Origin: Actinomycetes bacterium
GTDB lineage: Bacteria; Actinomycetota; Acidimicrobiia; Acidimicrobiales; GCA-2861595
Assembly: GCA_023264975.1 (NCBI GenBank)
Contig: JAHFUS010000042.1
Span: 1 to 35,161, forward strand
Length of the DNA stretch: 35,161 bases
Direction: 5' to 3'
Shown here: positions 10,686 to 32,846 of the stretch, piece by piece
Numbering within the stretch: position 1 is the stretch's first letter
Layout: every line of letters begins with the position of its first letter
The notes under the pieces: generated by a model
What the model saw: the letters and a program-made list of their open reading frames with translations, nothing else
What the model was told of the DNA's origin: nothing
Databases searched by the model: none
Position numbers and translations under genes: made by a program

Positions 10686-13286
10686 TCATCGAACCTCCAG
10701 CGATGCCTTGGTGTGATCCACGCCGTCGGCGGCAGAACGCCACGGCGCCCACGTGCCGCCCGGGCTGCGGATGGACCAGGGGTCGTGCCCGTTCGAACGG
10801 CCGGCCAATGTGATCCACTTCCCGCCGAACAGTTCCTGGAGCACCTGGTTGCGCTGGATGATCCCCTCGATGCGCTCGAAGGGTGCCTGGACGACCGCCA
10901 GCAGGCGGAACGGGTTGTGCATGCGGCGGTCGCCGACGCCCACCGCCTGCGCGGGGAGGCCGACCTGGAGGTCCCCGCCCTCGCCCAGGACGACGCCGAT
11001 GCCGCCCACCGGGTTGTGCAGCGTCTTATCCCCCGCGCCGAACTGATCGGGGTCGACCGCCGAGAAGTAGTACTGAGCGGAGATCCACTGGGCCACGACG
11101 AGCGGCGCGGTGAGGATCGTCTCCAGTGCGCTGCCGTCGCCGTCGCTCTCGGCGTCGTAGGAGTGCAGGAACACGCGACATGCCAGGTCGAGTCCCGCGG
11201 TGATCGAACGGGGTCCGACGACGAAGGCGGCATTGCTGGCGAGCCCCCATTCGGGCCGCACCTGCGCCCAGTCGTGCCCACGGACGCGGACCTTCCCGGC
11301 ATCTCCCGGGAGGCGCCTGGAGCGCTCGCGCGCGAGCCGTTCACCGGCCAGGGCGACGTCCCGCTCGAATGCCGCGACCAGCCGTTCGTGGGTGTCGGGC
11401 ACGGCCTCGCGGTCGAGGATGGCTACTTCGTCGGAGACCGTGTCGTGCTGGGCGGCGACGAAGAGCGTGTCGTCGGGCACCTCGATGCCTCGTTCCACGA
11501 GGCCGGCACGAACTCCAGGGTCGTTGAGGATGGCCGCGGCCACCCGGGCGCTCGGACCACCGGGGGCGCCGCCGCACGCGCCGCAGTCGTAGGAGGATGC
11601 GTGCGGGTTGTTGATGTTGTAGCTGCCGTGCCCGCAGAACACGATGAGCCGGGCGAAACGGGTCAAGCCCATGGTGCGGACGATGGCCTCGCCGAAGGAG
11701 ACCCGCTCCTCGAGCGTCAAACCGGAGCTGGCGTCGTGTTCCGCCTCGACATCCGGCCGTGTCCGCCCGGGGGCGACTCCGCGCCTCGTCAGTGCTCGCA
11801 GGCGACGCACCAGGCCCGGTGCCAGCGTCCTGGCCGCGGCCGCCGGCCCCATGATGTAGCCCGCCGCCTCGGCCAGCGCGAACGGACCGCCGAGGCTCCC
11901 TTTGGCGGCGTGGAAGGCCTCGTGCCCTGCGCCGGCGGTTCGCTGCACGGTGAGGTAGCCGAGGGCGCTGTCAGGGACGACCGGCTGCTCGGCGACCTCG
12001 TGGTCGGGCGTCACCAGCACCGGGCAGCGCGGCTGGCTCTCCGTCGACCCCAGCGGCCGCCAGCGCATGGGAACGCCGAAGAACCCGGCGAACCCGAGGG
12101 TCTCGTAGGGGCCGCAAGCCTGCAGGTGCCGTTGCAGGCCCTCCGAGCGCACGTCGATGCAGAAGGCGGCCTGCACGTCGGGGCGCTCGGTCACCGGGCC
12201 GGGGTCCGGGCGGCTCAGCAGTCCCAGCAGACGATCGCGGAAGTTCCCCTCCTGCGCCTCGAGCCACATCGCCTTCCGCACCGGCGGAGGCACCTGCTGC
12301 AGGACGCCACGCACGGCGGAGGTGACGACGGGATCGCCGGGGGTGCTGCCGAGCGCGGCGAGCACCGCCGCTGCCCGGTGCTCGAGGAGCTCCTCGGCCA
12401 ACTGGTCCTCGTCCTCCGGCGGCTGCCCGGCATCGGCGCCGGCTGCGCTATGGGCCGCAGCTGCCGTTGCGGCCACCTGCACGGCGAGCAGGTCCAGGAG
12501 GCGAAACGGGGGACGATGGTGGTCGGGCGGAGCCCACTCGTCCTGCCAGCGCGCGTACCCGGCCCAGCCCGGGAGCCGACCGAGGTGGTGGCGAAGCGCG
12601 TCGACGCGATCGCCTTCGACACCCAGCGCGTCCAGGGAAGCGGCGAGTGCCTCGACCGGACGGTCAGGCAGTTGCGCCAGCCACTGCATCCCGGTCGGTC
12701 CGGCGACGCGCCGGAGCCGCCGGTCGTGTGGCGCGAGCTCCCGCCACGCAAGGAAGAACCCGTCCTCGCGGCGGGGCATGGGCCACGGGACGTGGGCCTC
12801 GTCGACGAAGACCGCACACCAGAGGCCCACCAGCTCGCTGACCCTCCGGACGGTCTCGACCTCCGTACGGCCGACCCGATCGCGGCTGGCGTCCCGGGGC
12901 TTGTCGTCCGGTCCCAGGAGGAGGTCCAATCGGACGATCTCCGCCGCGTCGACCGTTCGCTCCCCGATCTCGATGCTGAGCGGCGACGCACGCTTCCAGT
13001 CGACTTCGATGATGGCGCGCCGGAGGTCCGCGTCGGTGGTGACCCCGCGCGTGTGGGCCTCGCGGAACGCGGCAAGCGTGAGGTGGGTGCGTGCCCGCAA
13101 CCACCGCCGGGCGACGGCGGTGGCCTCGTCGAAGGGGAGGTGCTGCAGGTTGACGAGGGGATTGACCGCCACGAAGCTGCTCAGCGGCCAGAGCGGAGCG
13201 ATGATCTCCGCCGCTTTGGAGACATCGGCGAGGAGTTCGGTGTGCCTGGCGGATCGTCCGCCGTCGCCGTCGCTTCGGTTGCTCAT
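10686..13286 (-). CDS. dabA: DabA, inorganic-carbon pump zinc subunit (DUF2309)
   Basis: 866 residues from ATG 13286, which overlaps the dabB stop as ATGA. DabA is the cytosolic partner of DabB. It has a beta-carbonic-anhydrase-like zinc site thought to make CO2 hydration one-way, driven by the ion gradient, so that bicarbonate accumulates. The site is intact: Cys376 and Asp378 in AAFCIDVRSE, His553 in FCGHGSYNINN, and Cys568 in SYDCGACGG, with the 15-residue His-Cys spacing of characterised DabA. The family opening (EIIAPLWPLSSFVAVNPLVN) is also present. The long open frame upstream of 13286 is only dabB read in another frame. It closes the carbon-fixation gene set. Confidence 0.95.
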   Translation of the reverse strand: MSNRSDGDGGRSARHTELLADVSKAAEIIAPLWPLSSFVAVNPLVNLQHLPFDEATAVARRWLRARTHLTLAAFREAHTRGVTTDADLRRAIIEVDWKRASPLSIEIGERTVDAAEIVRLDLLLGPDDKPRDASRDRVGRTEVETVRRVSELVGLWCAVFVDEAHVPWPMPRREDGFFLAWRELAPHDRRLRRVAGPTGMQWLAQLPDRPVEALAASLDALGVEGDRVDALRHHLGRLPGWAGYARWQDEWAPPDHHRPPFRLLDLLAVQVAATAAAAHSAAGADAGQPPEDEDQLAEELLEHRAAAVLAALGSTPGDPVVTSAVRGVLQQVPPPVRKAMWLEAQEGNFRDRLLGLLSRPDPGPVTERPDVQAAFCIDVRSEGLQRHLQACGPYETLGFAGFFGVPMRWRPLGSTESQPRCPVLVTPDHEVAEQPVVPDSALGYLTVQRTAGAGHEAFHAAKGSLGGPFALAEAAGYIMGPAAAARTLAPGLVRRLRALTRRGVAPGRTRPDVEAEHDASSGLTLEERVSFGEAIVRTMGLTRFARLIVFCGHGSYNINNPHASSYDCGACGGAPGGPSARVAAAILNDPGVRAGLVERGIEVPDDTLFVAAQHDTVSDEVAILDREAVPDTHERLVAAFERDVALAGERLARERSRRLPGDAGKVRVRGHDWAQVRPEWGLASNAAFVVGPRSITAGLDLACRVFLHSYDAESDGDGSALETILTAPLVVAQWISAQYYFSAVDPDQFGAGDKTLHNPVGGIGVVLGEGGDLQVGLPAQAVGVGDRRMHNPFRLLAVVQAPFERIEGIIQRNQVLQELFGGKWITLAGRSNGHDPWSIRSPGGTWAPWRSAADGVDHTKASLEVR

Positions 13287-14953
13287 GTCGATCGCGTGGT
13301 TTGGACGGGCTCGCGGCGCGCCCGTAGGTGGCGGCTTTCCGGCACGGGTGCTACCCCGGTCGAACTGCCCCGGGTCGTCAACCGGGAGGCGAAGGGCGCC
13401 GAGGTGAGCACGAGGGCGTACGCCCGGCCGCGCAACCTGCGCATCCGCTCCCCTGGCGTGAACCAGACGACGGCGACGACCAGCGTGATCGCCGCGAGGG
13501 TCGCAACGAGGAGAGCGGCGCTGACCGGCTCGGCGACCTCGGCGGGAAGGGCGGGAGCGACGTAGGTCTCCAACGCGGTCAGCCCGCCGATGTAGGCGAA
13601 CACGCCGGCGACGGCACCGAGTGCCGCGGTGGCGACCGCCGGGACGGGCCGGAACGGCGCCGAGCGCAGCCACCCGTCGACGCCCCGAGCCGCCGTTCCC
13701 CACGCGAACACCGTCACGAGCACGGACGCCGCCGTCGACAGGTGCGGGTGGATGACCAGGTACGCGGCCCAAAGGGCCGCAGCCGGTACCAGCAGCGCCA
13801 CGCCCAGTCGGACGCCCGGGGCGACGGCGCGGGGGGCAGGGCGTTGGCGGTGGCGTTGGCGGGCCGTGACCGAGCCGCCGGCGCCGAGGAACAGCGCTGC
13901 CTTGTACATGCCGTGCCCGAGGATGTGGAGCAACGCCGCGGTGGACGCTCCGATGGACACCTGCACTGTCATGAACCCCATCTGCCCTGCCGTGGACCAC
14001 GCCAGGTTCCCCTTCACGTCGCTGCGCACCAGCATCACGGTCGTCGCGTAACAGGTCGTGACGGCGCCCGCTGCGAAGGCCGCGTGCGTCGCCGTGGCCG
14101 ACGATCCGAACACCGGAGCGAGTCGCACCAACAGCACGCCGGCGCCGTTGACGACGCCTGCGTGGAGCAGCGCCGACACCGGCGTGGGCGCGGCGATCGT
14201 GGCCGGCAGCCACCGGTGCAGTGGCACGAGAGCGGACCGCGAGATGCTGGCGACGGTGAGGAGCACGGCGACCACCGGCAACACGCTCCAACCGAGCACC
14301 GGGATCGACGCGTGCGCCAGCTCCTCGGCGGCCGCGGCCGGCGAGCGGAGGTCGATCTCGCCGACGGAGACGACGGCGAGAAGCGTGGCCGCCAGCAGGG
14401 CGCCGTCCCCCACCTGGAGGTTGCGCCGGGTCCGCCGGGCCGAACGCGGCGCCGGTAGCCAGGTGGCCCGGTGGGCCACCAGCGCAGCCAACGCGACGCC
14501 GGCCACAATCCAGGCGGCGCACAGCAGGCCGAGGGTGGCGGCGAATGCCACCGAGGTCGTCGTCGCTGTCAGCAGCGAGGCCAGTACGAAGAAGCGGCGC
14601 CCCCGAAGATCCCCCTGCAGGTTCCTGCTGGCGAAGGACTGGACGACCAGGCCGACGCCGGTGGTGAGCAACCCCAACAGAGTGGTGACGCGAGAGGCAT
14701 GCAGGCCGACGAGCGCGTTGCCATCGCCCCCCTCGACGACGGCTGCGACCGGTCCGTCCACAGCCACCACGACCGCCACGACGACCGCCACGGCGAACGC
14801 GGCAGAGGCCGCTCGTACCGCCCATCGGGAGGACCGCTCTCCGACCGCCACCGTGGGGGTCGACCACCCTGCGGGGCGCGCGGCGGCGATCGCCGCGGCG
14901 GCGATGGCCGGCAGCGCGGGGACGGCGATCACCAGCAGCTGGCGTGCCGTCAT
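13283..14953 (-). CDS. dabB: DabB, membrane subunit of inorganic-carbon pump (NuoL-like)
   Basis: 556 residues from ATG 14953, 49 bases after the Nudix/ThiE-like gene. It is a polytopic membrane protein of the proton-conducting antiporter group related to complex I NuoL. The antiporter core reads SALVPLHRWLPATIAAPTPVSALLHAGVVNGAG, with further conserved Lys/His positions in VKGNLAWSTAGQMGFM and HILGHGMYKAALFLGAGG (given here in short pieces of longer helices at about residues 240-350). It lacks complex I partners, as expected of DabB. It supplies the cation pathway that energises DabA. Its last bases overlap the dabA start, so the two subunits are translationally coupled. Confidence 0.93.
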   Translation of the reverse strand: MTARQLLVIAVPALPAIAAAAIAAARPAGWSTPTVAVGERSSRWAVRAASAAFAVAVVVAVVVAVDGPVAAVVEGGDGNALVGLHASRVTTLLGLLTTGVGLVVQSFASRNLQGDLRGRRFFVLASLLTATTTSVAFAATLGLLCAAWIVAGVALAALVAHRATWLPAPRSARRTRRNLQVGDGALLAATLLAVVSVGEIDLRSPAAAAEELAHASIPVLGWSVLPVVAVLLTVASISRSALVPLHRWLPATIAAPTPVSALLHAGVVNGAGVLLVRLAPVFGSSATATHAAFAAGAVTTCYATTVMLVRSDVKGNLAWSTAGQMGFMTVQVSIGASTAALLHILGHGMYKAALFLGAGGSVTARQRHRQRPAPRAVAPGVRLGVALLVPAAALWAAYLVIHPHLSTAASVLVTVFAWGTAARGVDGWLRSAPFRPVPAVATAALGAVAGVFAYIGGLTALETYVAPALPAEVAEPVSAALLVATLAAITLVVAVVWFTPGERMRRLRGRAYALVLTSAPFASRLTTRGSSTGVAPVPESRHLRARREPVQTTRST

Positions 14954-16673: not shown

Positions 16674-17000
16674 CTACGAGGGTGCGACCTGGGTTTCGTG
16701 GGCACCGGCGGGAAGGATCTGCTCCACCTCGCTGTGCGGCCGGGCGATGATGTGCGCGGCAGCCAGGCCGTCGCCCACGCGCTCGCACGCGTCGGCACCG
16801 GCACGGACGGCCGCGTTGACGGCGCCCGTCTCGCCACGGACCAGCACGGTGACGTAACCACCGCCGACGAACTGGCGGCCGATGAGCCGCACCTCCGACG
16901 CCTTCGTCATCGCGTCGGCAGCCTCGATCGCAGGGACGAGGCCCCGGGTCTCGATCATGCCCAGGGCAATGCCCGGGATATTTCCATTGTTGGTGGCCAT
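16674..17000 (-). CDS. csoS1: CsoS1 carboxysome shell hexamer protein (BMC-H)
   Basis: 108 residues, a single BMC domain. The opening GIALGMIETRGLVPAIEAAD, the following MTKASEVRLIGRQFVGGGYV and LVRGETGAVNAAVRAGADA are the standard BMC-H strands and helices; six copies form the flat shell tile with a central pore. The C-terminal helix region (HIIARPHSEVEQILP) is also typical. It is the only BMC-H gene in the window, whereas many alpha-carboxysome operons have two or three csoS1 paralogues plus csoS1D. A GGAGGAAG ribosome site and an A/C-rich leader precede it. Confidence 0.97.
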   Translation of the reverse strand: MATNNGNIPGIALGMIETRGLVPAIEAADAMTKASEVRLIGRQFVGGGYVTVLVRGETGAVNAAVRAGADACERVGDGLAAAHIIARPHSEVEQILPAGAHETQVAPS

Positions 17001-17073: not shown

Positions 17074-17334
17074 TCAGTCGCGCCAGCGCTCCTCGCTCCA
17101 GTCGTCGATTATCCCGCCGATGGTCAGGTCTGTGGTGATGTTGAAATCGCCGGTGGCATGGCGGGCCGCCGAGGTGCTGATGGTGATGACGAAGTCGCCC
17201 GGCTTTGCACCGACCGGGTCGAGCGCCACCTCGAGGTCGCCGCCACCGTCCTCGACCACCCGCAGCGACTTGTTTTGGAGCGTGGGGACCCGACTGGTGG
17301 CGACGAGGTCGCCCACGATGCGGTGGATGTTCAT
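17074..17334 (-). CDS. csoS4B: CsoS4B carboxysome shell pentamer protein (BMC-P)
   Basis: 86 residues from ATG 17334, which overlaps the csoS4A stop (ATGA). It has the EutN/CcmL-type fold: MNIHRIVGDLVATSRVPTL, then VALDPVGAKPGDFVITISTS and ITTDLTIGGIIDDW. The Gly-Ala-Lys-Pro-Gly-Asp turn and the ending IIDDW are family marks. Five copies cap an icosahedral vertex. Length is normal for the family, and the first residues fit a start at this ATG. Confidence 0.95.
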   Translation of the reverse strand: MNIHRIVGDLVATSRVPTLQNKSLRVVEDGGGDLEVALDPVGAKPGDFVITISTSAARHATGDFNITTDLTIGGIIDDWSEERWRD

Positions 17335-17666
17335 CGTCGAGCCTCACCGGGCGTCGACGCGACGGCCGAGTCCACGACCACCAGCTCCGGCTCGGACTCC
17401 TCGGAGCGCTCTCCCGGGCTCTCCTCGTCCCAGTAGTCGATGATACCGACGATGGTCAGGTCGCTCGGGTAGTCCTTGTGGCCGGCGGCTTCGCGCGCCG
17501 CCGAGCTGCCACAGGCGATCACCCAGTCGCCGGGCTTGCAGCCGACGGGGTCGACCGCCACCTGCTTGCCTCCCTTCCGGTCCTGGACGACCAGCAGCCG
17601 GTGGAGCTCGAGGCCGGGGATGCGAGCGGTGGCGACCAGCGTGCTTTCGACGCAGAAGATCTTCAT
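17331..17666 (-). CDS. csoS4A: CsoS4A carboxysome shell pentamer protein with an acidic C-terminal extension
   Basis: 111 residues from ATG 17666, overlapping the csoSCA stop (ATGA). The BMC-P core is complete in about 83 residues: MKIFCVESTLVATARIPGL, then VAVDPVGCKPGDWVIACGSS and SDLTIVGIIDYWD. The usual CsoS4A ends near this point, but here about 28 more residues follow, rich in Glu and Ser (EESPGERSEESEPELVVVDS). The tail ends on the TGA that overlaps the csoS4B start, so it may have grown by loss of an earlier stop. Larger frames upstream of 17666 are csoSCA read out of frame. Confidence 0.95.
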   Translation of the reverse strand: MKIFCVESTLVATARIPGLELHRLLVVQDRKGGKQVAVDPVGCKPGDWVIACGSSAAREAAGHKDYPSDLTIVGIIDYWDEESPGERSEESEPELVVVDSAVASTPGEARR

Positions 17667-19243
17667 CGCTGTGCCGCCTTCTGTCGCGTTCCGGATCGCG
17701 AGAACGGCTGGCCGTCGCCCTCCGCCTCCACCACTTCGAGGCGCGACCCACCCCGCGCCCGCACGACCCCTTGGGTGACGAGGCCAGCAGGGCCGGCCGC
17801 ACCCGCATACCGGGTCTCGATCGCCGCGGTGAGGCGGCGAGCGCGTTCTTGCGCCCTGGCGCAGGCGCCCGGGATGCGCTCGTCGTAGGCGACGTGCACG
17901 AGCACCGGGACCGCAAGCCCATGCGGTGCGTTCGTCCGCCCGAGGACCGCTATGCCGATGTCGAGATCGACGGCACCTTCTTCGAGCGTGCCCATTTGCG
18001 CTTGGAACGTAAGGTTGCGCAGCTGAACATCGTCGATGGCATCGCCGGCCACGACCAGCTTCTCGGCGTGGCCTGAATCTGCGTACCTTCCGCCGTTCCA
18101 ACCGACAACCGCGTCGACCTGGCCGATGTTGTTCTTCAGCAGGTAGCCGCAGAGCCAGCGCATGCCCTCGGTCGCGACGTCGGCCGCGTCCACGCCGGCG
18201 CAGTCGGCGACGGCGTGGCGGATGAACTCCTTGGCCGCCTCACGCTCGAGGCTCGCAGTCTGCTCGTAGAGCGTGGCGCTGGACACGAAGCGGTCCACGG
18301 CGGTCTCACCGCCGGCGTCGGGAACGTGGACCCGGATGGCGTCGGTGTCCGTGTCCACCCCGACGAGCAGCGTGTCCACGCCCGCCCCGCAGCAGTGGGT
18401 GCACTCGACGGCACCCGCGAACTCCTGGAGCCGCGCCAGCAGGCCGGTCGCGGCGCGCGCCTCGTCACTGCCGAACGCCGCACAGCCCTGGTGGCGTGGG
18501 TCGACGCTGCTGAAGTGGTAGAGCCCGATCTTCAGGTAGCGCGTGGGCTCGCTGGCGTCGTTCGGCCAACCCTCGCGCCAGCGTCGCAGCTCCAGCGCTT
18601 CCCAGCGGTGCAGAGCGTCCTCGACGTCGAACATCGCGCCGGCATACGCGTCGCGCCACACCACGACGGCGGGCGGCACCCGCAGGATGAAGTCCACCGC
18701 CCCAGCGAGGCGCCCGTCGGCGCAGGCGGTGATGTCGACTGCGTGGAATCCGAATCGCCGGATCAACACCTCGTTGCTCTCGCCCTCGTCGAGCAGCAAC
18801 GCGAGGTTCCGGTCGAACTCGCGCTCCACCAAGTTCCGGAAGGTGGCGAGAACGCAGCGGGCGTGGATGCAACCGAGGTCCAGCGGTGCGCTCCAGGACG
18901 ACTCGAGCTCAGCCGCCGGGATGTCGACGCCGAGCGAGTTGGCCAGCTCGCGATGCGCCTGCTCGGGGAATCCGTCGTCGAACTGGCGCCGTGCCAGCCG
19001 GCGCAGGACCGGTTCGATGAGCGCAAAGGCCGCCCCGATCTCCTCGGCTCGCTGCTTCAGGGCGGCGCTGAGCGCAGGCTCGGCCAGCGGATGCCCGCCC
19101 GCCGGCCGGCTCAACGGGAACCCCGTTGTCGGGGCCGGCTGGCCCGGATTCGACGTGACGGTCGCCGCGCTCGGACGCGACCAGGCCGCGCCCTGGTCCC
19201 AGGGAGCGAGCGTGCGCCCGTCGGGCTGGAGCAGGGACTTCAT
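17663..19243 (-). CDS. csoSCA: CsoSCA, carboxysomal beta-class carbonic anhydrase
   Basis: 526 residues from ATG 19243, overlapping the csoS2 stop. It converts bicarbonate to CO2 inside the carboxysome. The zinc ligands match the Halothiobacillus enzyme: Cys174 in ITACADGRLAG, His243 in LYHFSSVDP, and Cys254 in RHQGCAAFG. Asp176 and Arg178 form the usual dyad. The first 60 residues are Pro/Ala-rich and probably disordered; in known CsoSCA this part anchors the enzyme to RuBisCO. The C-terminal half is the degenerate second catalytic-like domain (QVDAVVGWNGGRYADSGHAE). Length and order agree with the family. Confidence 0.96.
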   Translation of the reverse strand: MKSLLQPDGRTLAPWDQGAAWSRPSAATVTSNPGQPAPTTGFPLSRPAGGHPLAEPALSAALKQRAEEIGAAFALIEPVLRRLARRQFDDGFPEQAHRELANSLGVDIPAAELESSWSAPLDLGCIHARCVLATFRNLVEREFDRNLALLLDEGESNEVLIRRFGFHAVDITACADGRLAGAVDFILRVPPAVVVWRDAYAGAMFDVEDALHRWEALELRRWREGWPNDASEPTRYLKIGLYHFSSVDPRHQGCAAFGSDEARAATGLLARLQEFAGAVECTHCCGAGVDTLLVGVDTDTDAIRVHVPDAGGETAVDRFVSSATLYEQTASLEREAAKEFIRHAVADCAGVDAADVATEGMRWLCGYLLKNNIGQVDAVVGWNGGRYADSGHAEKLVVAGDAIDDVQLRNLTFQAQMGTLEEGAVDLDIGIAVLGRTNAPHGLAVPVLVHVAYDERIPGACARAQERARRLTAAIETRYAGAAGPAGLVTQGVVRARGGSRLEVVEAEGDGQPFSRSGTRQKAAQR

Positions 19244-21885
19244 CCTTGGGCTCCGCCGGAGACGGTGACCCTGACCCCGTCCTTCGGGCTCCCGCCGACT
19301 CGGCCCGTGACATTCGCGCTCTCACCCGGCGATCCGGGCGTGGCCAGGTCCTTGAACCTGGTCGCCCCGGCCCAGCCGTGGGGTCCGCCGCCGCCCTCAC
19401 TGGGATTGCGCCCGGCCGCGATATAGCCGTCGGTGCCCGTCACCAGGTGGTGGGCCGTCCACGCCGCGGCCGAACCGGTGATCGTCCGACCTTCGATCTC
19501 GCCTTCGCCCGTGACCGCCACTGGTTGGCTGGCGTTACGGTTCAGGCGGGGCCGGAACAGGAACTCATTGTTGCCGGTCACCATGCCGTCGCCGACGGCG
19601 AAGGACCCGGAGATGCGGCCAGGCACGTTGGAAGCGGGCGGCGCCGCCTTGTCGGTCTCCCACGTGGCAGTGTCGTCGCCCCCCCCGCCTGCCAGGCGCC
19701 GCGCCAGTGCCACCGGCACCGAGAAGGCCTGCCAGCGCGCCCCGTCGTCGGCTGCCGGCTCGGCGGGCCGCATGTCGCCGTAGTAGGACGATCCGGTGAT
19801 GTCGTTCCGGCGGCCCCGCTCGATGCCGGTGACCCCCTTGGCGTACATGGGGAGGTCGCCGGTCACGGCCACACCTTTCGGCCTGGGGTCGAGGCGCTGG
19901 GCCGCGGGCTCACCCTCATCGGGCTCGCACCAGCCGAAGATGGTGGATGGCCCCTGGTACGGCGTGCCGGTCAGCTGGCGGCAAGAACCCGGCTCGTCGC
20001 CGGTGACGTTGGGGCGGTGCTCCATGCTCGGACCGGTGACGCGCTGGCCCCTCCAGGTCTGCGCCACGGTCACCTTGCCGGCCGTCACCGGGTCCAGACG
20101 GGCCCGGTTGAGGTGAGCGGCCGGCGCGGTACCGCCGCCGGTGCCGCCGCATTCGCTGGAGGATGACGAGAGAATCTGGTACTGGTCGCCGGTGATCGGG
20201 CGGCAGGCGCCGGCCTCGTTCCCGGTGACGCGCCCGCTGCGACCGACGGCCGTGCCGGTGACGGCCAGCCCGTCGTCGGTGTTCTCCAGCGGGTACCAGG
20301 GCCCCTCCCCGGTGGAAGTCCCCATTCCTGGATGCGGCACGAGCCTCGTGCCGACCGCGGTCGCGCCGTGCGGGTCGGCGCGGCGCGGGAACTGCGCCGA
20401 ACGGTAGGCCCCGTCGCGGCGTGGGGTCAGGTCGTCGTCGAACTTCTGGTCGGCTTCGCCGGTGATGCGGAGGTGCTCGCCGGCCTCGTCACCGGTGATC
20501 GGGACGTTGTTACGAACCGTGGTGCCCGAGACGACGAGGCCATGCGGCGTGCGGACCAGCCCGACCTTCGGCCCGGAGCCCATCGAAGGGGCCGACCCGT
20601 CGGCTGCGAGGTACTGGGTGCCCGACACCGGGAGCGCGGCGCCGGGCTCATCGCCCGTGACGCCCACGCCCGGACCGATCCGCAGCCCGGTCACCCGCTG
20701 GCGGCCCTGGGTGGGCGACACGACGACCTTGGGCGGGTGCGTGACCCGACCCTCTCGCTGCGGCCTGCTGGCCCCCGCGCCGCCGAAGCGGTTCGCCTCG
20801 GCACCCCGAGCCCGAGCCTGCTCGCGAACGGAGACGGCTCGGTCGCCATTGGTGGCTTCGGCGGCGGGGGCCGCGCCGAGACCGGCTGCGGCCGCGGTCT
20901 GGCCGGCGCCGGCGGTGAGGGCCTGCTGGCCCTGGGACAGCTGGCGGCGGCGCTCCTTGGAGAGGGCGCGGCCGAGGTGGGCAGCGGCCACGCCGTCGGT
21001 GGCGCCGGCCGTTCCTCCCGGAGCCCATTGGCTGCCGTTCGATGCGGCTTGACCGTCGGGCGTGGGGGCTGCTCCCGCGCCGTTGCCGTGCCGGTTGTCG
21101 GCGGCGGGGGGCGCGCCGAGACCGGCTGCGGCCGCGGTCTGGCCGGCGCCGGCGGTTAGGGCCTGCTTGCCCTGGGACAGCTGGCGGCGGCGCTCCTTGG
21201 AGAGGGCGCGGCCGAGGTGGGCGGCGGCTACGCCGTCGGTGGCGCCGGCCGTCGCGGCGGGGGCCGCGCCGAGACCGGCTGCGGCCGCGGTCTGGCCGGC
21301 GCCGGCGGTGAGGGCCTGCTGGCCCTGGGACAGCTGGCGGCGGCGCTCCTTGGAGAGGGCGCGGCCGAGGTGGGCAGCGGCCACGCCGTCGGTGGCGCCG
21401 GCCGTTCCTCCCGGAGCCCATTGGCTGCCGTTCGATGCGGCTTGACCGTCGGGCGTGGGGGCTGCTCCCGCGCCGTTGCCGTGCCGGTTGTCGGCGGCGG
21501 GGGGCGCGCCGAGACCGGCTGCGGCCGCGGTCTGGCCGGCGCCGGCGGTTAGGGCCTGCTTGCCGTGGGACAGCTGGCGGCGGCGCTCCTTGGAGAGGGC
21601 GCGGCCGAGGTGGGCGGCGGCCACGCCGTTGGTCGTGTCGGCCGTCGCGGCGGGGGCCCGTTGGCTGCCGTTCGACGGGCCTTGGCCGTTGGGGCTGGGG
21701 ACTGCTCCCGCGCCGTTGCCGTGCAGGTTCTCCGCGCTGTCCGGAGCGCTCCCGCCGTACATGGCCTGCTGGCCCTGGGACAGCTGGCGGCGGCGCTCCT
21801 TGGAGAGGGAGCGGCCGAGGTGGGCAGCATTTCGGAACTCGCCCAACTCAGCGCTGTCGGCGGACTGGACCGCGTACATTCCCAT
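19240..21885 (-). CDS. csoS2: CsoS2, carboxysome scaffold protein with expanded N-terminal repeats
   Basis: 881 residues from ATG 21885; a GTG at 21900 would add five. CsoS2 is the disordered scaffold that gathers RuBisCO and binds the shell. N-terminal domain (1-350): five RuBisCO-binding motifs of the form GRxLSKERRRQL begin at residues 24, 94, 174, 225 and 305. The middle region (about 395-640) has repeats with paired VTG elements (QRVTGLRIG, GVTGDEPGA; LAVTGTAVG, RVTGNEAGA). The C-terminal region (about 640-881) ends in the conserved VRVTVSGGAQG peptide. A GGAG site lies nine bases before the ATG, and the preceding gene stops one base before it. The N-terminal repeats are nearly identical in DNA, pointing to recent expansion. 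Confidence 0.93.
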   Translation of the reverse strand: MGMYAVQSADSAELGEFRNAAHLGRSLSKERRRQLSQGQQAMYGGSAPDSAENLHGNGAGAVPSPNGQGPSNGSQRAPAATADTTNGVAAAHLGRALSKERRRQLSHGKQALTAGAGQTAAAAGLGAPPAADNRHGNGAGAAPTPDGQAASNGSQWAPGGTAGATDGVAAAHLGRALSKERRRQLSQGQQALTAGAGQTAAAAGLGAAPAATAGATDGVAAAHLGRALSKERRRQLSQGKQALTAGAGQTAAAAGLGAPPAADNRHGNGAGAAPTPDGQAASNGSQWAPGGTAGATDGVAAAHLGRALSKERRRQLSQGQQALTAGAGQTAAAAGLGAAPAAEATNGDRAVSVREQARARGAEANRFGGAGASRPQREGRVTHPPKVVVSPTQGRQRVTGLRIGPGVGVTGDEPGAALPVSGTQYLAADGSAPSMGSGPKVGLVRTPHGLVVSGTTVRNNVPITGDEAGEHLRITGEADQKFDDDLTPRRDGAYRSAQFPRRADPHGATAVGTRLVPHPGMGTSTGEGPWYPLENTDDGLAVTGTAVGRSGRVTGNEAGACRPITGDQYQILSSSSSECGGTGGGTAPAAHLNRARLDPVTAGKVTVAQTWRGQRVTGPSMEHRPNVTGDEPGSCRQLTGTPYQGPSTIFGWCEPDEGEPAAQRLDPRPKGVAVTGDLPMYAKGVTGIERGRRNDITGSSYYGDMRPAEPAADDGARWQAFSVPVALARRLAGGGGDDTATWETDKAAPPASNVPGRISGSFAVGDGMVTGNNEFLFRPRLNRNASQPVAVTGEGEIEGRTITGSAAAWTAHHLVTGTDGYIAAGRNPSEGGGGPHGWAGATRFKDLATPGSPGESANVTGRVGGSPKDGVRVTVSGGAQG
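20861..21646 (-). repeat. 393-bp in-frame tandem repeat inside csoS2
   Basis: Copy one starts at 20861 and copy two at 21254, an offset of 393 bases or 131 codons. Positions 20861-21171 and 21254-21564 are identical by eye (311 bases), with a few changes after that. Each unit carries two GRALSKERRRQL motifs. An older, shorter unit is visible inside it, since the motif recurs at alternating 51- and 80-residue spacing. Confidence 0.9.
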
Positions 21886-21886
21886 C

Positions 21887-21913
21887 TCAGCGAGCTCCAC
21901 TGCGGTGGACGAT
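21887..21913 (-). repeat. Copy of the cbbS 3' end at the csoS2 start
   Basis: These 27 bases match 22321-22347, the last nine codons of cbbS including the stop, at 24 of 27 positions. They encode IVHRSGAR-stop here and IVHRAGAR-stop in cbbS. The match marks the break point of a local duplication that included the cbbS-csoS2 junction. Confidence 0.85.
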
Positions 21914-22312
21914 CAAGACCGGCGGCCCGGCGCCGGCAGCCGCCGCCGTCCGGTCACCGCCCAGCGCCTGCTTGCCCTTGGACAGCTGGCGGCGTCGCTG
22001 CATGGAAAGGGCGCGGCCGAGGCGGCCGGCGGCCACGCCGTCGATCGCGATCGGCGTCGCTCCCAAAGCTGCGCGCGCACCTTGGCCGTCGGACACGGCG
22101 GGGGTCGGGCCTCCCGCAGCTTCGGGTGCACGAAGCCCGACCGCCCGCGACGCGTTGCGCGCCCGCTCGTGGCCGGGCGCCGGAGCCGTCCGGCCGGCGG
22201 CGAGCGCTCGGCGGCGCGACATCGCCGCGGCGCGGCCGTCACGGGCAGCATTTCGCAGCGCGGCCACGTCACCACGGCAGGTGGTCTGGTCCTCGTGCAG
22301 TCCCATGCTCAT
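21887..22312 (-). CDS. Stand-alone CsoS2 N-terminal-like protein with a CbbS-derived tail
   Basis: 141 residues from ATG 22312 (GAGG six bases upstream; TTG 22318 is an alternative). It has two RuBisCO-binding motifs of CsoS2 type, GRAAAMSRRRALAAGR from residue 26 and GRALSMQRRRQLSKGKQAL from residue 99, joined by a disordered Ala/Pro/Gly linker. It then has DRTAAAAGAGPP, which matches the repeat linkers of the full CsoS2. It ends VLIVHRSGAR, a near copy of the CbbS C-terminus. It has no VTG repeats and no shell-binding C-terminal region. It lies 8 bases after cbbS, and one base separates its TGA from the csoS2 ATG. It could bind RuBisCO without tethering it to the shell. A frame-shifted leader of CsoS2 is the alternative. 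Confidence 0.8.
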   Translation of the reverse strand: MSMGLHEDQTTCRGDVAALRNAARDGRAAAMSRRRALAAGRTAPAPGHERARNASRAVGLRAPEAAGGPTPAVSDGQGARAALGATPIAIDGVAAGRLGRALSMQRRRQLSKGKQALGGDRTAAAAGAGPPVLIVHRSGAR

Positions 22313-22320
22313 CACCAACC

Positions 22321-22659
22321 TCAGCGGGCTCCAGCGCGGTGGACGATGAAGGCGGTGCCCTGAGACTGCTGGTAGTTGTCGTAGCCGAGGAGGCGAACGT
22401 GGTGCCCGGGATTGGCACGGTGGCAGGCCTCGATCTCCGCCAGGACCTTGTCCACCGACCGCTCACCGAAGAGCGGGAGCTCCCACAGGTACCAGAAGTT
22501 CGACATGGACTTCGCGGGCTCCGAGTGTTCGATGGCCGGGCTCCAACCGTTCTCGATGAGGTACGCGATCTGGTAGCGGAGCCGCTCCGGCGTCATCGGC
22601 GGCAGATAGGAGAAGGTCTCCACATGGCGCGGGGTGGGCCCGTAGGGGTCAATGTGCAT
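22321..22659 (-). CDS. cbbS: RuBisCO small subunit, form IA
   Basis: 112 residues from ATG 22659, with AAGGACAG about seven bases upstream. The family sequence is clear: [20 protein letters not shown], then [36 protein letters not shown] and [20 protein letters not shown]. The short N-terminus and the short loop between the first strands are typical of form I proteobacterial-type subunits. Eight copies cap the CbbL octamer. It follows cbbL by 84 bases. Its last nine codons are echoed 434 bases downstream at the csoS2 start. Confidence 0.97.
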
Positions 22660-22743: not shown

Positions 22744-24171
22744 TCAGGCGGTGATCTTGTCCACCGTGTCGAACTCGAACTTGATCTCTTTCCAGGTCTC
22801 CATAGCGATCGCGAGCTCGGGGCTGTGGCGGGCCGCCTCGGTCAAGATCTCGCGGCCCTCGCGTTCGACCTGCCGGCCCTGGTTCCGTGCCTCCACGCAG
22901 GCCTCGAGCGCCACCCGGTTGGCGTGGGCGCCGGGTGCGTTGCCCCACGGGTGGCCGAGCGTCCCGCCGCCGAACTGCAGGCAGGAGTCGTCGCCGAAGA
23001 TCGCCACCAGGGCGGGCATGTGCCAGACGTGGATGCCTCCCGAGGCCACGGGCATGACCCCGGGCATCGATGCCCAGTCCTGGTCGAAGAAGATGCCGCG
23101 CGTGCGGTTCTCGGGCACGAAGGCCTCCCGCATCAGATCGATCCAGCCGAGGGTGGCCTCGCGATCGCCTTCCAGCTTGCCGACCACGGTGCCGGAGTGG
23201 AGATGGTCGCCCCCGGACAGGCGCAGGCACTTGGTGAGCACCCGGAAGTGGATGCCGTGCATGGGGTTGCGGTCGACCACCGCGTGCATGGCGCGGTGAA
23301 TGTGGAGCAGCATGCCGTTCTCGCGGCACCAGTTCGCCAGGCCCGTGTTGGCGGTGAACCCGGCGGTGAAGAAGTCGTGCATGATGATCGGGGCGCCGAG
23401 CGACTTGGCGAACTCGGCCCGCTTGTACATCTCCTCCGGCGTGGCCGAGGTGACGTTGAGGTAGTGGCCCTTGCGCTCGCCCGTCTCGGCTGTGGCCTTG
23501 TGCACCGCTTCCATCACGAACTCGAAGCGGTGGTTCCAGCGCATGAACGGCTGGCTGTTGATGTTCTCGTCGTCCTTGGTGAAGTCGAGCCCGCCTCGGA
23601 GGCACTCGTAGACGGCGCGCCCGTAGTTCTTGGCCGACAGGCCGAGCTTGGGCTTGATCGTGCAGCCAAGGAGCGGGCGCCCGTACTTGCCGAGGCGGTC
23701 ACGCTCCACCTGGATGCCGTTGGGGGGGCCGCCGCAGGTCTTGACGTACGCCACTGGGAAGCGAATGTCCTCGAGGCGCAGGCTGCGCAGGGCCTTGAAG
23801 CCGAAGACGTTGCCGACGAGCGAGGTCAGGACGTTGACGACCGAGCCTTCCTCGAAAAGGTCCATCGGGTAGGCAACGAAGGCGAAGAAGGCGCCGCTGG
23901 GGTCGTTCTTCACCGGTTCGATCCGGTAGGCCCGGCCCTTGTAGTAGTCGAGATCGGTGAGCAGGTCGGTCCACACCGTGGTCCAGGTGCCGGTGGACGA
24001 CTCGGCGGCCACCGCCGCGGCCGCTTCCTCGCGGGGCACGCCTTCCTGGGCAACCACCTTGAAGCACGCCAGGAGGTCGGTGTCGTTCGGCACGTAGTCC
24101 GGGGTCCAGTAGTTGTCGGCGTAATTCTTAACGCCGGCCTGGTAGCCGCCACTGCCGTTGCTCTGCGCCAC
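22744..24171 (-). CDS. cbbL: RuBisCO large subunit, form IA (carboxysomal)
   Basis: 475 residues from ATG 24171. It fixes CO2 onto ribulose-1,5-bisphosphate. Active-site residues are present: Lys173 in [11 protein letters not shown], the carbamylated Lys199 with Asp201 and Glu202 in [14 protein letters not shown], His292 in LLHIHRAMH, and loop-6 Lys332 in [12 protein letters not shown]. The N-terminus ([21 protein letters not shown]) is of form IA type, which fits packing in alpha-carboxysomes, where CsoS2 contacts the CbbL-CbbS interface. It is the first gene of the operon, with cbbR divergent upstream. No cbbQ/cbbO or cbbX activase gene is present in this window. Confidence 0.98.
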
Positions 24172-27006: not shown

Positions 27007-27309
27007 GTGCGGGACTTCCTCACGAGCGCGGCCGTCCCCGCCGGCGACCGGGACGAGATCCTCGCCGCCATGAAGGACGTCCAGGTCAACGGGCTGGTGG
27101 CCGCCCGTCACCTGCACGGCGACATCTACGAGGTGCGCGCCACCGGTGCGCGGGCCGCCTACCGAGTGCTCTTCGCCACCGAAGGCGCCAAGAGCCAAAT
27201 CCTGCTCGCGGTGTCGGCGTTCAGCAAGAAGACCCAGCGGACGCCGCTGGGCGAGATCGCCACAGCCGAGCGCCGGCTTGCCGACTGGCGGGCTCGTGCC
27301 CGGAAGTGA
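27007..27309 (+). CDS. RelE/HigB-type toxin
   Basis: 100 residues from GTG 27007, but the family sequence clearly begins earlier. In the same frame upstream, WRFYRTAGGTTPVRDFLTSA is the usual N-terminus, and the frame stays open back to 26905 without any ATG, GTG or TTG. Later parts fit too: GDIYEVRATGARAAYRVLFA and KSQILLAVSAFSKKTQRTPL, ending in a basic helix. Such toxins cleave mRNA at the ribosome. Either translation uses an unusual start upstream or the gene has lost its start. The antitoxin gene follows 42 bases later. Confidence 0.7.
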   Translation: MRDFLTSAAVPAGDRDEILAAMKDVQVNGLVAARHLHGDIYEVRATGARAAYRVLFATEGAKSQILLAVSAFSKKTQRTPLGEIATAERRLADWRARARK

Positions 27310-27329
27310 TAACCCAGATATAGGTTATC
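27308..27329. promoter_or_regulatory. Inverted repeat between toxin and antitoxin genes
   Basis: gataacc (27308-27314) and ggttatc (27323-27329) form a perfect 7-bp inverted repeat around an 8-base AT-rich centre, overlapping the toxin stop. This is the shape of an operator bound by an XRE-type antitoxin, and it may double as an internal promoter for the antitoxin alone. A strong GAGGAGGAGG ribosome site follows at 27335-27344. Confidence 0.6.
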
Positions 27330-27351
27330 CTGACGAGGAGGAGGTGCCAGG

Positions 27352-27684
27352 GTGGCTGCGAAGGACGACCTCGACCAACTGATCGACGAACTGGCGGAGG
27401 ACGACCCGCTGCTCCCGTCGCGTGTGGCGGCGGCCCTTGAGCGGCGCGAGCTCGCCCGTCAACTCGCCGACCGGCGCCGGGAGGCCGGCCTCACCCAGTC
27501 GGAACTGGCCAAGCGGATGCAGACCAGCCAGGGCCAGGTGACGCGCTTCGAGTCCGGCGCCGACACCCGCCTGTCCACCGTCGCTCGTTACGCGGCGGCC
27601 GTCGGGATGAAGGTTGAGTGGTCGCTTGCCCCGGTCGCTCGGCAGCGAAGGAAGGCAAGCTCCAAGGCCACCCTGGGTGGCTAG
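27352..27684 (+). CDS. XRE-family antitoxin (HigA-like)
   Basis: 110 residues from GTG 27352, eight bases after a purine-rich ribosome site. The N-terminal part is acidic and helical (DDLDQLIDELAEDDPLLPSR). A helix-turn-helix of the Cro/C1 type follows (GLTQSELAKRMQTSQGQVTR, then FESGADTRLSTVARYAAAVG), with the strand MKVEWSLAPV at the end. It should neutralise the toxin encoded upstream and repress the pair. Toxin-first order is typical of HigBA. It would stabilise the integrated element. Confidence 0.82.
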   Translation: MAAKDDLDQLIDELAEDDPLLPSRVAAALERRELARQLADRRREAGLTQSELAKRMQTSQGQVTRFESGADTRLSTVARYAAAVGMKVEWSLAPVARQRRKASSKATLGG

Positions 27685-29004: not shown

Positions 29005-32000
29005 CTACAGCCCGAGCCCCAACCCGAGATCACGTGCCGGCTGTGCCCACTGCAACCAGTCCGGCGTCGGCGGCTCGACGGCCTCCAGCTGCATCCGGAG
29101 GTCCTCCCAGGCGATGGCCTGGACGCCCCGCAGGTTCCCCTCGTGCCCGAGCTGGTCTGGCTCAACCCGCCACTGTTCCCGGTAGCCCTCCACAGCTCCG
29201 GCCTTGTTCAGCCAGCGCTCCCGGGCGTGGTCCTCAAGAGGCGGCGGGCCCAGGAGGCGAAGCACATGAGCTGGAGGGTGCTGCTCGGCGGCCAGGGCCA
29301 GCTCGCTTCGCCGCTGGGCCACCCGCTCGGCCAGGTCCTCCATCCAGGCCACCTCCACGGGATGCTCGGCCATCCACGCATCCCGGGCCTCCCCTGCCGC
29401 CACCAGCTCCCGGAAACGCCCCTGGGCCTCGGCCGCGACGGGTTCGACTTCCTGCAGCGCACTCCGGGCCCGTTCGGCCTCTACTTCGAGACCACCGAGG
29501 CGGGCCAGGCCGGCTCCGAGCAAGCGCTCGGCCTGCTCGACGGCTTCGGCGTGGGCCCGGCGCCGGAACAGGCCTGCACGATCGCCGAGGGCGTCGAGCT
29601 TGGCCCGGCTGGCCTCGACCGCCGCTTGCGCCCTGTGCAACTGCTCCTCCGCCCTCGGCAGGGTCTGCGCCGCCCCATTCCTCACGTTGTCGGCCCGGAG
29701 GAACTCTTCCAGGCGCTCCTGCAGCTCGTGGTGGCGATTCGGGCCGGCGCCTCGGTTGACGAGGCGGCGGGCCTCGATGAGGGCGGGTACCAGCATGGCC
29801 AGGTCCTCCGAGCGCTCCAGCTCGGAGCGCAGCACCTCGGTGGCCGACAATTCCGCCCCGCTGCGGCCGAGGGCGTCGGCCAGCGCCTCGGCCGGCGTCG
29901 GCGGGCGTCGCCAGCCGTGCTCGTCGCCGATCTCCACCACCACGCAGGCCTGGTTCTCCAGCCGGCCCCGGGTCATGGCCACGTAGACCAGCTCGGCGCT
30001 GGCCGCCTCGTCGACCACCACCACGCCCCTGTCGACGGTGAGACCCTGCGCCTTGTGGACGGTGACGGCGTAGGACAGCGCCACGTGCTCGGCCACGTAG
30101 TCACCGGGCAGGACCACACGACCGCGCCCGTCGGCGTGGTCGACCACCAGTGAGCCGTCACGGCGGCGCTCAGTCACCACCCAGCGGTCCCCGTTGCGCA
30201 CCCAGGCGCCGAGACTGGTGACGAGGCGCCGGTCGTTCTCGATCGTGACCACCTCGTCGCCCACGCCGGCCACCTGGGCGCCCACCGCCACGCCACCGGG
30301 CTCCACCTCGCCCGCCGCCACCCGCACGGCCCGGGCCCGCATCGCCAGGGCATCGACGGTCACGTGGTCCTGCGCCAGCACCACCACCGACTCGCCGAGT
30401 TTCCGGCAGCGCTGCCAGGAGGCGAAGGCGGCCTCCACCATCTCCTCCCGGCTGCCGCCCACCAGGCGGCCGTGACGCTCGTACTCGTCCACCACGCTCT
30501 GGTCCCCTCGGCGCAGACGCAGGGTGGCGGCCGCCTCCCAGGGCTCCACGAAGCGCCGGGCGTCGGTCAGCTCGGCCGCCCGTGTGTCGGCCACCAAGAG
30601 ACGGAACAGCCCACCCGCACCCACCGCCCCCAGCTGGCGGTGGTCACCCACCAGGACCAGCTTGGCCTGGGCCGCCTCCACCGCCGCCACCAGGCGGGCG
30701 AGATCGGAGGTGGCCACCATGCTGGCCTCGTCGAGGACGACCGCCTCGCCGGCACGGAGGCGCCACTGCGGGTCGGGGACGGGCTTGGCGTTCTCGAACA
30801 GGAACTTGGCCAGGGTGTCCGACGCCAGCCCGGCCTCCTCGGTGAGCACCCCGGCCGCCACCGCCGAGACGGCCAGACCGCGAACGGGCACGCCGGAGGC
30901 CTCCCAGGCCCGTCGCGCTGCGCCCACCGAGCGGGTCTTGCCCGCTCCTGCCGGGCCGACCAGGCACACCACGGCCTCCCCGCCGGCGCACACCCGCCGC
31001 ACGGCCGCCGCCTGGTCCTCGCCCAGGCCGCCCGAGACCACCGCCGCCTCGACGGCGTGATGCGAGGCGACGGCCACGCCGGCCTCCCGGCCCCGCCCGG
31101 CGAAGTCGATCACGTCGGCCTCGAGAGCGAGCGTGGCCCTGGTGGTGTAGCGGGCACGGCCGTGGCGCTCGGTGGTGGGCAGGCCGTCGCGCCGGCGCAG
31201 GGCGTCGGGGACCTCGGCCCGGGGCGGGGCGGCCAGCGACACGACGTGGCGGTCGGCCAGCACCGCATCGGCCCCCGCCTCGATCCAGGCCCGGGCCTGC
31301 TCGGCGCTGGACACCAGGGCGGGAGGAAGGCGCCGGGCCACCAGTCGCAGCGCATCGGTGCGGCCCCACGTCGAGCGCTGCTCGGCTAGCTCCGCCACCA
31401 CCTCGGCCACCACGTCGCCCGCCGCCGCCAGGGGCAGCCCCAGCTGTGCCGGTGCGCGCCCGAGGGCCTGATCGAGCCAGGTCTCCGGCGAGCGTCCGAA
31501 GGCGGCGGCATCGGACATCCAGCGCTCGACGAGGCTCTCGGTGGTCTCGGCTCCACGTCCCTTGGCCGGACGCGTCGCCAGGGTGGCCACCTGGTACGCC
31601 TCGGCCCGCTCATCCGCCGTGAGCGACCGGCCCAGCCGGGCCTCGGCCGTGGCCACCCGCACGGCGCCGGCCACCTCGATCTCTCGCCGGCGGGAGGAGA
31701 AGTGCCGACACAGCTCCTCGGGCACGCCCACGATGTCGGACTGGCCGTTGACGTCGACCGGCGCCCACTCCACCCCCCGGCGGGCGGCCAGCTCGGCCCG
31801 CAGAGCGGCCTGGTAGACGCCACTCGCCGACTTCTGGTGGGCGTACAGCTCCCGGCCGTCGACGGCCCGCCAGCGCCCGTCCCCGCAGCGGACCTTGTTG
31901 GACACCAGCAGGTGGGTGTGCAGCTGGGGGTCGACGCCCCGCGAGACACGGTGGACGAAGGTGGCGATGACGAGGCCCTCAGTGTCGACCTGGAACACTC

Positions 32001-32421: not shown

Positions 32422-32846
32422 GTCAGCCCCGTTGCGCGCAACGTTGCCGAGCGGGAGTGGCACCGAAGGGTGCAGAGGTGTCCAGGAATGAATCCATCGT
32501 GGCGATGAGTATGGACTCAATTCAATTGCTCGTCTAGCGATTCTCTCGATCTTTTAGCTGATGTGGTAGTGGTGGCTATTAGCGTCTATTGATTGTATGC
32601 GATGGCTCAATCTGGTCCGTAGAAGGTAAGCGTGGCCGTTGCATTCCTCGGTTGTCCGTGCCTCAGAAGCGTCAGCCGGGGCCTCTGCTCCACGCCTACC
32701 GCCACGGCGCACGCGACCCCGAACCCCTTGCGAAAGAGGAACTCTTTGCGTCAAGTTCCGAATTTCCTGTCGCGAACGGGCTCGGCGGCGGCCACTACCT
32801 AGGAAGTGGCGACGTCCGGGAAGTGGCGACGTCCGGAGGGATCCCC
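32422..32846. promoter_or_regulatory. Relaxase upstream region, candidate oriT and promoter
   Basis: This stretch has a palindrome gttgcgcgcaac (32431-32442) ten bases upstream of the relaxase ATG, an AT-rich patch (about 32515-32625) unlike its surroundings, and a perfect 17-bp tandem repeat gaagtggcgacgtccgg (32803-32819 and 32820-32836). GGTAGTGG-like motifs recur in both orientations (around 32566, 32791, 32920 and 32935). Position beside a MobF gene makes it the best oriT candidate; the nick site cannot be assigned by eye. Confidence 0.5.

What the first reader, a model, noticed from the sequence alone, without database searches (positions are those of the whole stretch)
21887..22347. 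A free CsoS2 N-terminal protein made by duplication of the cbbS-csoS2 junction
Between cbbS and full-length csoS2 lies a separate 141-residue gene with two CsoS2-type RuBisCO-binding motifs but none of the VTG repeats or the shell-binding C-terminus. Its last codons (IVHRSGAR-stop) copy the end of CbbS (IVHRAGAR-stop), with 24 of 27 bases matching. The simplest history is a tandem duplication spanning the cbbS end and the csoS2 start, followed by deletion that fused the first csoS2 N-terminal domain to the copied cbbS tail. The product would bind RuBisCO without linking it to the shell. It might condense RuBisCO, tune carboxysome size, or imitate the short CsoS2A form that other species make by ribosomal frameshifting. 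I know of no described stand-alone CsoS2 N-terminal gene.
Basis: partly seen in the sequence, partly recalled or inferred. Interest (0 to 1): 0.88.

Follow-up and report, generated by a model that had tools for sequence, protein, structure and literature searches.

The report
Split-off carboxysome scaffold head gene
Some actinobacteria carry, beside the gene for the carboxysome scaffold protein CsoS2, a small separate gene that encodes only its RuBisCO-gripping head, probably making a free RuBisCO glue; it arose by an ancient duplication, and in most carriers selection still appears to preserve its gripping motifs.

Summary
Window 21887-22312 (-) is a 141-codon gene between cbbS and csoS2 with two RuBisCO-binding motifs, no shell-binding repeats, and an end copied from cbbS. 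It is no artefact: 6 of 18 readable cbbS-csoS2 junctions carry it (three families of one order, plus a more distant genome of the phylum), each with a detectable cbbS-tail copy. It comes from one old tandem duplication; no extra deletion is needed. The short gene keeps the ancestral csoS2 head (74-78% identical to a single-copy relative); the head of full-length csoS2 is the derived copy. All nine alignment gaps are multiples of three. In the four genomes with both motif positions, the motifs are under purifying selection (pn/ps about 0.3) while the rest drifts. One carrier has lost one motif and another both, so function is not uniform. Best reading: a free, mostly disordered, basic RuBisCO cross-linker, working like CcmM35 of beta-carboxysomes, from a translationally coupled gene whose copied cbbS tail supplies the csoS2 ribosome-binding site. 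The CsoS2A analogy fails: that isoform enters shells through M-repeats. Expression and binding are untested; a coupling relic is the main rival.

The parts
21887..22312 (-). short CsoS2-head gene, 141 aa (P0001); predicted pI about 12, mostly disordered
   Evidence: relatives
22190..22234 (-). N1 motif RAAAMSRRRALAAGR, the type found in single-copy relatives
   Evidence: coordinates worked out
21971..22015 (-). N2 motif RALSMQRRRQLSKGK
   Evidence: coordinates worked out
21881..21917 (-). copy of the cbbS 3' end: last codons of the short gene, GGAG ribosome-binding site and start region of csoS2
22315..22351 (-). original cbbS 3' end, the other copy of the 37-nt repeat
22321..22659 (-). cbbS, form I RuBisCO small subunit; D94 and Y96 kept
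22744..24171 (-). cbbL, form I RuBisCO large subunit; Y76 (Y72 in Halothiobacillus) kept
19240..21885 (-). full-length csoS2, 881 aa, five N motifs, M and C regions
17663..19243 (-). csoSCA, carboxysomal carbonic anhydrase
17331..17666 (-). probable second csoS4 vertex protein (MKIFCVESTLVATARIPGLE...), not scanned against families
   Evidence: read in the ORF list
17074..17334 (-). csoS4 vertex protein (carboxysome peptide B)
16674..17000 (-). csoS1 shell hexamer protein

Best explanation
A single old tandem duplication of the segment from the last codons of cbbS through the first two N motifs of csoS2 split the csoS2 head into a separate, translationally coupled gene. It encodes a free, basic, mostly disordered protein with two helical RuBisCO-binding motifs. 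Shown: the gene, its ancestry, its retention in six genomes, its open frame, and selection on the motifs in four genomes. Inferred: the protein is made, binds the RuBisCO hexadecamer at the same CbbL/CbbS groove as CsoS2, and, being bivalent without any shell anchor, cross-links RuBisCO to RuBisCO, so it adjusts cargo clustering and the cargo-to-shell ratio. The cbbS-tail copy survives because it carries the ribosome-binding site of csoS2; the short gene stops one to two bases before the csoS2 ATG.
For: Present in 6 genomes. The five carriers with usable CbbL are one side of a branch of the CbbL tree, support 83/95. Heads of short and full genes separate with support 97/99; in the five carriers compared, orthologues are 72-85% and own-genome paralogues 60-67% identical. 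Nine of nine alignment gaps are multiples of three. Motif pn/ps 0.31-0.32 (p 1.4e-4 to 2.2e-4) against 0.82-0.92 elsewhere, synonymous rates not different between the two; N1 alone 0.17-0.22 in four genomes without G003, N2 alone 0.18-0.23. Predicted helices cover the motifs (11-38, 95-118), with one further short helix 49-57 and the rest coil (low confidence). RuBisCO contact residues are kept. One RuBisCO small-subunit match in each of 7 draft genomes, the 6 carriers and G082, so the carboxysomal enzyme is the only form I target seen. The isolated CsoS2 NTD condenses RuBisCO in vitro (PMC10614612, passages), at low salt (PMC11365436, passages).
Against: No expression or binding data. G878 has lost N2, G033 keeps no intact motif, and G003 has lost the glycine of N1. 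Whole-gene dN/dS is 0.47-0.88, and for 2 of 6 pairs (G000-G003, G003-bin2) the bootstrap range of pn/ps includes 1; for G000-G003 one wrong-frame control is even lower (0.71) than the true frame. The motif test used the four genomes that still have both motif positions, which favours the result. With G003 in, N1 alone is 0.39, p 0.052. Codon-position GC bias is weaker than in cbbS and csoS2. Full-length CsoS2 with RuBisCO gave only transient condensates at 150 mM salt without shell protein (PMC11365436, passage), so a two-motif protein may not condense RuBisCO by itself in cells.
Confidence: 0.58

Rival explanations
1. Coupling relic: after the duplication the short ORF is kept only because ribosomes must read it in frame to reach and re-initiate at csoS2; its protein is a by-product without function.
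For: In 6 of 6 carriers the stop lies 1-2 bases before the csoS2 ATG, with GGAG inside the last codons. The frame is kept even in G033 and G878, where motifs are lost. The linkers and the tail evolve freely.
Against: Amino-acid changes are suppressed in the motifs but not outside them, while synonymous changes are alike in both; pure coupling predicts no such difference. N1 is no longer like the N1 of its own csoS2, so conversion by csoS2 is an unlikely cause.
Confidence: 0.27
2. Competitor or regulator rather than glue: with one or two motifs the free protein occupies RuBisCO sites that CsoS2 or carbonic anhydrase would use, and so limits their loading. Not fully exclusive of the linker reading, since a linker would also compete.
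For: CsoS2 and CsoSCA peptides compete for the same RuBisCO site (PMC10614612, passages). G878 has a one-motif form, which could compete but could not cross-link by motifs alone.
Against: Four of six carriers keep both motif positions, three of them with both motifs intact, as expected for a linker. CsoS2 repeats are described as binding RuBisCO with low affinity and multivalently (PMC11365436, passages), so a one-motif competitor should be weak.
Confidence: 0.15
3. Decaying pseudogene: a duplication remnant that has had no time to disappear.
For: Motif losses in G033 and G878 and a damaged N1 in G003. A substitution-only neutral simulation keeps a 146-codon frame open in 53-77% of runs, because the sequence is so G+C-rich.
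Against: Nine of nine gaps are multiples of three, and motif pn/ps is about 0.3, at synonymous distances of 0.28-0.42.
Confidence: 0.1
4. Assembly error in the repetitive csoS2 head.
For: The csoS2 head of the window holds an exact 300-nt repeat 393 nt apart, which could confuse assembly.
Against: The same gene with diverged sequence is in five other genome assemblies, and the two repeat copies at the junction are only 84% alike.
Confidence: 0.02

Closest known systems
CsoS2 N-terminal domain (alpha-carboxysome scaffold)
   Same: Homologous; same R-x5-RR...G[KR] motifs, basic, helical motifs in disordered linkers, same operon position after cbbS
   Different: A separate gene of two motifs, no M or C region, ends in a copied CbbS tail
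CsoS2A short isoform (frameshift product, Halothiobacillus)
   Same: Carries RuBisCO-binding motifs and lacks the C-terminal shell anchor
   Different: CsoS2A keeps M-repeats and enters shells through them (PMC11481516, passages); the short gene has none and is an independent gene
CcmM35, the short CcmM isoform of beta-carboxysomes (recalled; long and short CcmM forms are mentioned in a passage of PMC4499774)
   Same: Would work alike: RuBisCO-binding modules without the shell-linking part
   Different: Unrelated modules; CcmM35 comes from an internal start in ccmM (recalled), not from a separate gene
EPYC1, RuBisCO linker of algal pyrenoids (recalled)
   Same: Free disordered multivalent RuBisCO linker
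   Different: No sequence relation known to me, not tested; eukaryotic, no shell

Membership tests
CsoS2 (full scaffold) | N-terminal RuBisCO-binding repeats | tested here: met
   Two motifs in the short protein of the window; homology of its head to csoS2 heads
CsoS2 (full scaffold) | M-region [VIM][TS]G repeats (PF12288) | tested here: not met
   No Pfam family at E<=0.1
CsoS2 (full scaffold) | Conserved C-terminal shell-binding region | tested here: not met
   The sequence ends in a cbbS-tail copy instead; no NCBIfam match at E<=0.1
CsoS2A isoform | Produced by frameshifting inside csoS2 and containing M-repeats | tested here: not met
   Separate ORF with its own start and stop, no M-repeats; frame offset to csoS2 is 1 in G000 and 2 in the five others
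CcmM35-like RuBisCO linker (functional analogy only) | RuBisCO small-subunit-like modules | tested here: not met
   No PF00101 or NCBIfam CcmM match in the short protein at E<=0.1
RuBisCO-binding protein of alpha-carboxysomes | Physical binding to form I RuBisCO | not testable with these tools
   Only indirect: motifs and conserved contact residues

The most novel reading that the evidence does not exclude
Alpha-carboxysomes of this actinobacterial lineage have divided the scaffold's work between two genes: full CsoS2 ties RuBisCO to the shell, and a dedicated free linker, split from the ancestral csoS2 head, ties RuBisCO to RuBisCO. This would be an evolved counterpart of CcmM35 that lets cargo packing be set independently of shell anchoring.
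Probability: 0.4. Interest if true: 0.75.

Novelty: new variant of a known kind. Interest (0 to 1): 0.6.

Why it matters
CsoS2 links cargo to shell in alpha-carboxysomes, and in the papers whose passages I saw the roles of its parts were studied with engineered truncations. A natural, conserved, stand-alone head gene would be a truncation that evolution has already tested. It makes the question of how much RuBisCO-only cross-linking a carboxysome needs directly testable, and it gives a small part for engineering carboxysome size and loading.

Tried and rejected
Rejected: assembly artefact (same gene in five other genomes). Rejected: programmed fusion of short protein and CsoS2 (frame offset 1 in G000 but 2 in the other five; a stop in the csoS2 frame just upstream of its start in the window; in G033 that frame is open upstream). 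Rejected as unnecessary: duplication plus deletion. Rejected: independent recent duplications (orthologues closer than paralogues). Judged unlikely: gene conversion as the cause of motif conservation (synonymous rates not different between motifs and the rest).

Led nowhere: Pfam, NCBIfam and a PDB sequence search of the short protein gave nothing (two PDB matches at E 3.5 and 3.7, chance). The structure model is low-confidence (mean pLDDT 51) and was used only for the place of helices; no fold search was run on it. The weak G250 match (E 5e-4, one stop) was not followed. A plasmid search found 120 records with a match, none covering 80% of the query; of the 10 listed only H1 showed an annotated csoS2, and its junction has no short gene. 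A mobile carboxysome island was considered: a TrwC relaxase (29008-32520) lies on the window's contig, but G000 has relaxase matches on many contigs, and no match in the other seven genomes searched lies on the contig of a csoS2 locus, so this stays a side observation.

Dropped rows: G878 and G033 were left out of the two-motif selection test because they lack one or both motifs. G003 was left out of the N1-alone tests that gave 0.17-0.22 (with G003: 0.39, p 0.052). G878 was left out of the CbbL tree (its CbbL is cut by the contig end). short_G033 was left out of the head tree. The three pairings reuse the same four genomes and are not independent tests. The DNA alignment used gap settings that favour few long gaps. 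The first tail test with only 80 bases upstream failed for G878 (1463 of 2000 random windows as good), because its cbbS end carries an insertion; with 150 bases it gave 0 of 2000.

Full report
What is there. The window is one whole contig of a 3.78-Mb draft genome. On its minus strand runs an alpha-carboxysome operon: cbbL, cbbS, the short gene, csoS2, csoSCA, two csoS4-type genes (one confirmed by family search, one read in an ORF list), csoS1. The short gene (21887-22312) encodes 141 aa, predicted pI about 12 (computed on the 139-aa form), with two motifs of the type R-x5-RR-x5-G[KR]. The published CsoS2 motif is RxxxxxRRxxxxxxGK (PMC10614612, passages); the spacing one residue shorter is shared by the full-length CsoS2 proteins of this group, so it is a trait of the lineage. 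The contact residues that I could place are kept in the window's RuBisCO: CbbL Y72 and D99 (here Y76 and D104) and CbbS Y96, all three named in that paper for CsoS2 or CsoSCA peptides; CbbS D94, which I recalled as a contact, is kept too. The numbering follows chain 1svd, where positions 72 and 99 are Y and D as the paper says.

Is it more than chance? The last 36 bases of the short gene align with the cbbS end above all 2000 random windows of the same locus in each of the six carriers (margins are narrow for G033, 17 against 15, and G878, 17 against 14.5).

Distribution. csoS2 is rare in this group: 11 of 397 sampled genomes of the order and 3 of 396 of the phylum, the window's genome included. 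I read the cbbS-csoS2 junction of the csoS2 loci found by the genome searches and the scan of named genome contigs, plus one plasmid: 18 readable junctions and one unreadable one (G095, masked bases). Six carry the short gene: G000 (window), G003 (same family), G137 = locus L036 (second family of the order; MAG 0711_bin2), G239 = L029 and G033 = L030 (third family of the order), and G878 (kinship given only as same phylum). Twelve do not: G082, L031-L035, G036, G040, G085, G155, G345 and the Nitrobacter hamburgensis plasmid. Among the ten loci whose CsoS2 begins MGMYAV, six carry it.

History. In the CbbL tree the five carriers with usable CbbL are one side of a branch (83/95; 83% of 200 bootstrap trees). 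A DNA tree of the first 45 codons separates short heads from full-length heads with 97/99. In the five carriers compared, short heads are 73-85% identical to each other and full heads 72-84%, but a short head is only 60-67% identical to the full head of its own genome. So the duplication most likely happened once, before these lineages parted. The single-copy csoS2 head of G082 resembles the short genes (74-78%) more than the full-length heads (59-68%). The N1 of four single-copy relatives reads RRRALSAGR (three) or RRRAVAAGR (one), like RRRALAAGR of the short gene. The short gene is therefore the conserved original head, and the N1 of full csoS2 became the RRRQLSQGK type. A tandem duplication running from about the last dozen codons of cbbS to the linker after N2 gives the layout in one step.

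Junction design. In all six carriers the short gene stops 1-2 bases before the csoS2 ATG, and GGAG of the copied cbbS tail sits 9-10 bases upstream of that ATG. The cbbS stop precedes the short gene by 2 bases in five carriers and by 8 in G000. The copied tail is thus a portable ribosome-binding site; its amino acids are about as variable as the linkers.

Selection. Nine of nine gaps in the DNA alignment of the six short genes are multiples of three: 3, 12, 6, 162, 69, 33, 33, 252 and 36 nt. Two of them may share an event, and deletions between similar motifs could be in frame for mechanical reasons, so this is strong but not proof. Open frames alone are weak evidence: 53-77% of substitution-only neutral simulations stay open. 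Whole-gene dN/dS is 0.47-0.88 over six pairs; for two pairs the range includes 1. Split by region, in the four genomes with both motif positions, the motifs show pn/ps 0.31-0.32 (p 1.4e-4 to 2.2e-4) and the rest 0.82-0.92 (not different from 1); synonymous rates do not differ between motifs and the rest (p 0.63-1), which argues against gene conversion. Against this stand the losses: G878 lost N2, G033 keeps no intact motif, and G003 has a damaged N1. The fair statement is that the motifs are preserved in most carriers and abandoned in some.

Mechanism. Reported by others: the CsoS2 head binds RuBisCO with low affinity and multivalently, and the isolated head condenses RuBisCO in vitro at low salt (passages of PMC10614612, and PMC11365436); at 150 mM salt full-length CsoS2 and RuBisCO without shell protein gave condensates that dissolved within 30 minutes (PMC11365436). 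Inferred: a free two-motif protein would cross-link RuBisCO without tying it to the shell, perhaps only together with CsoS2 and shell. Each of the seven draft genomes checked shows a single RuBisCO small-subunit match, so the carboxysomal enzyme is the only form I target seen. The closest working analogue is CcmM35 of beta-carboxysomes (recalled), a RuBisCO linker without the shell-linking part. CsoS2A is a poorer analogue: it enters shells through at least two M-repeats (PMC11481516, passages), and the short protein has none. The serious rival is a translational-coupling relic; it predicts the kept frame but not the motif-restricted protein conservation.

Literature. Searches for CsoS2 with N-terminal domain (25 of 30 papers listed), actinobacteria (8 of 8), paralog (none found), Acidimicrobi (1 of 1), CsoS2-NTD (1 of 1), truncated/fragment/-like/free/two/homolog (12 of 12), and CsoS2A (10 of 16) listed no title or abstract beginning about a stand-alone CsoS2 N-terminal gene, and the passages I saw in seven papers did not mention one. 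No paper was read whole. The library holds open-licence PMC papers only; the main paper on CsoS2-RuBisCO binding (Oltrogge 2020) is not held. So novelty is likely but not proven.

Verdict. A real, old, conserved split-off scaffold head: a new variant of a known kind, with a testable function and no functional data yet.

Noticed in passing
window 20861-21553: The head of full-length csoS2 contains an exact 300-nt repeat at 393 nt spacing; N motifs seem to expand by tandem duplication, and the true copy number may be uncertain in a draft assembly.
   Followed up: partly
window 29008-32520, 34060-34974, 42-353: TrwC-type relaxase, tyrosine recombinase and a small HTH_17 protein lie on the same contig as the carboxysome operon; the locus may sit on or near a mobile element. 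No relaxase match lay on the csoS2 contig in the other seven genomes searched.
   Followed up: partly
window 10686-14867: A DabA-type inorganic carbon transporter subunit (PF10070) lies downstream of the carboxysome operon.
   Followed up: no
L038 7036-7434 (G878) and L024 8120-8488 (G239): The cbbS C-terminus is lengthened by local insertions; in G878 the codons for SNGAR, which contain the GGAG ribosome-binding site, recur three times. The junction seems to be a hotspot of small duplications.
   Followed up: partly
CbbL tree: The CbbL tree groups G000 with G033 and G003 with G239, against their family assignment, and a same-genus genome (G001) shows no csoS2 match: the carboxysome locus may move between these actinobacteria.
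   Followed up: partly
window 27007-27684: A Gp49-like (DUF891) gene followed by an HTH_3 gene, possibly a toxin-antitoxin pair.
   Followed up: no
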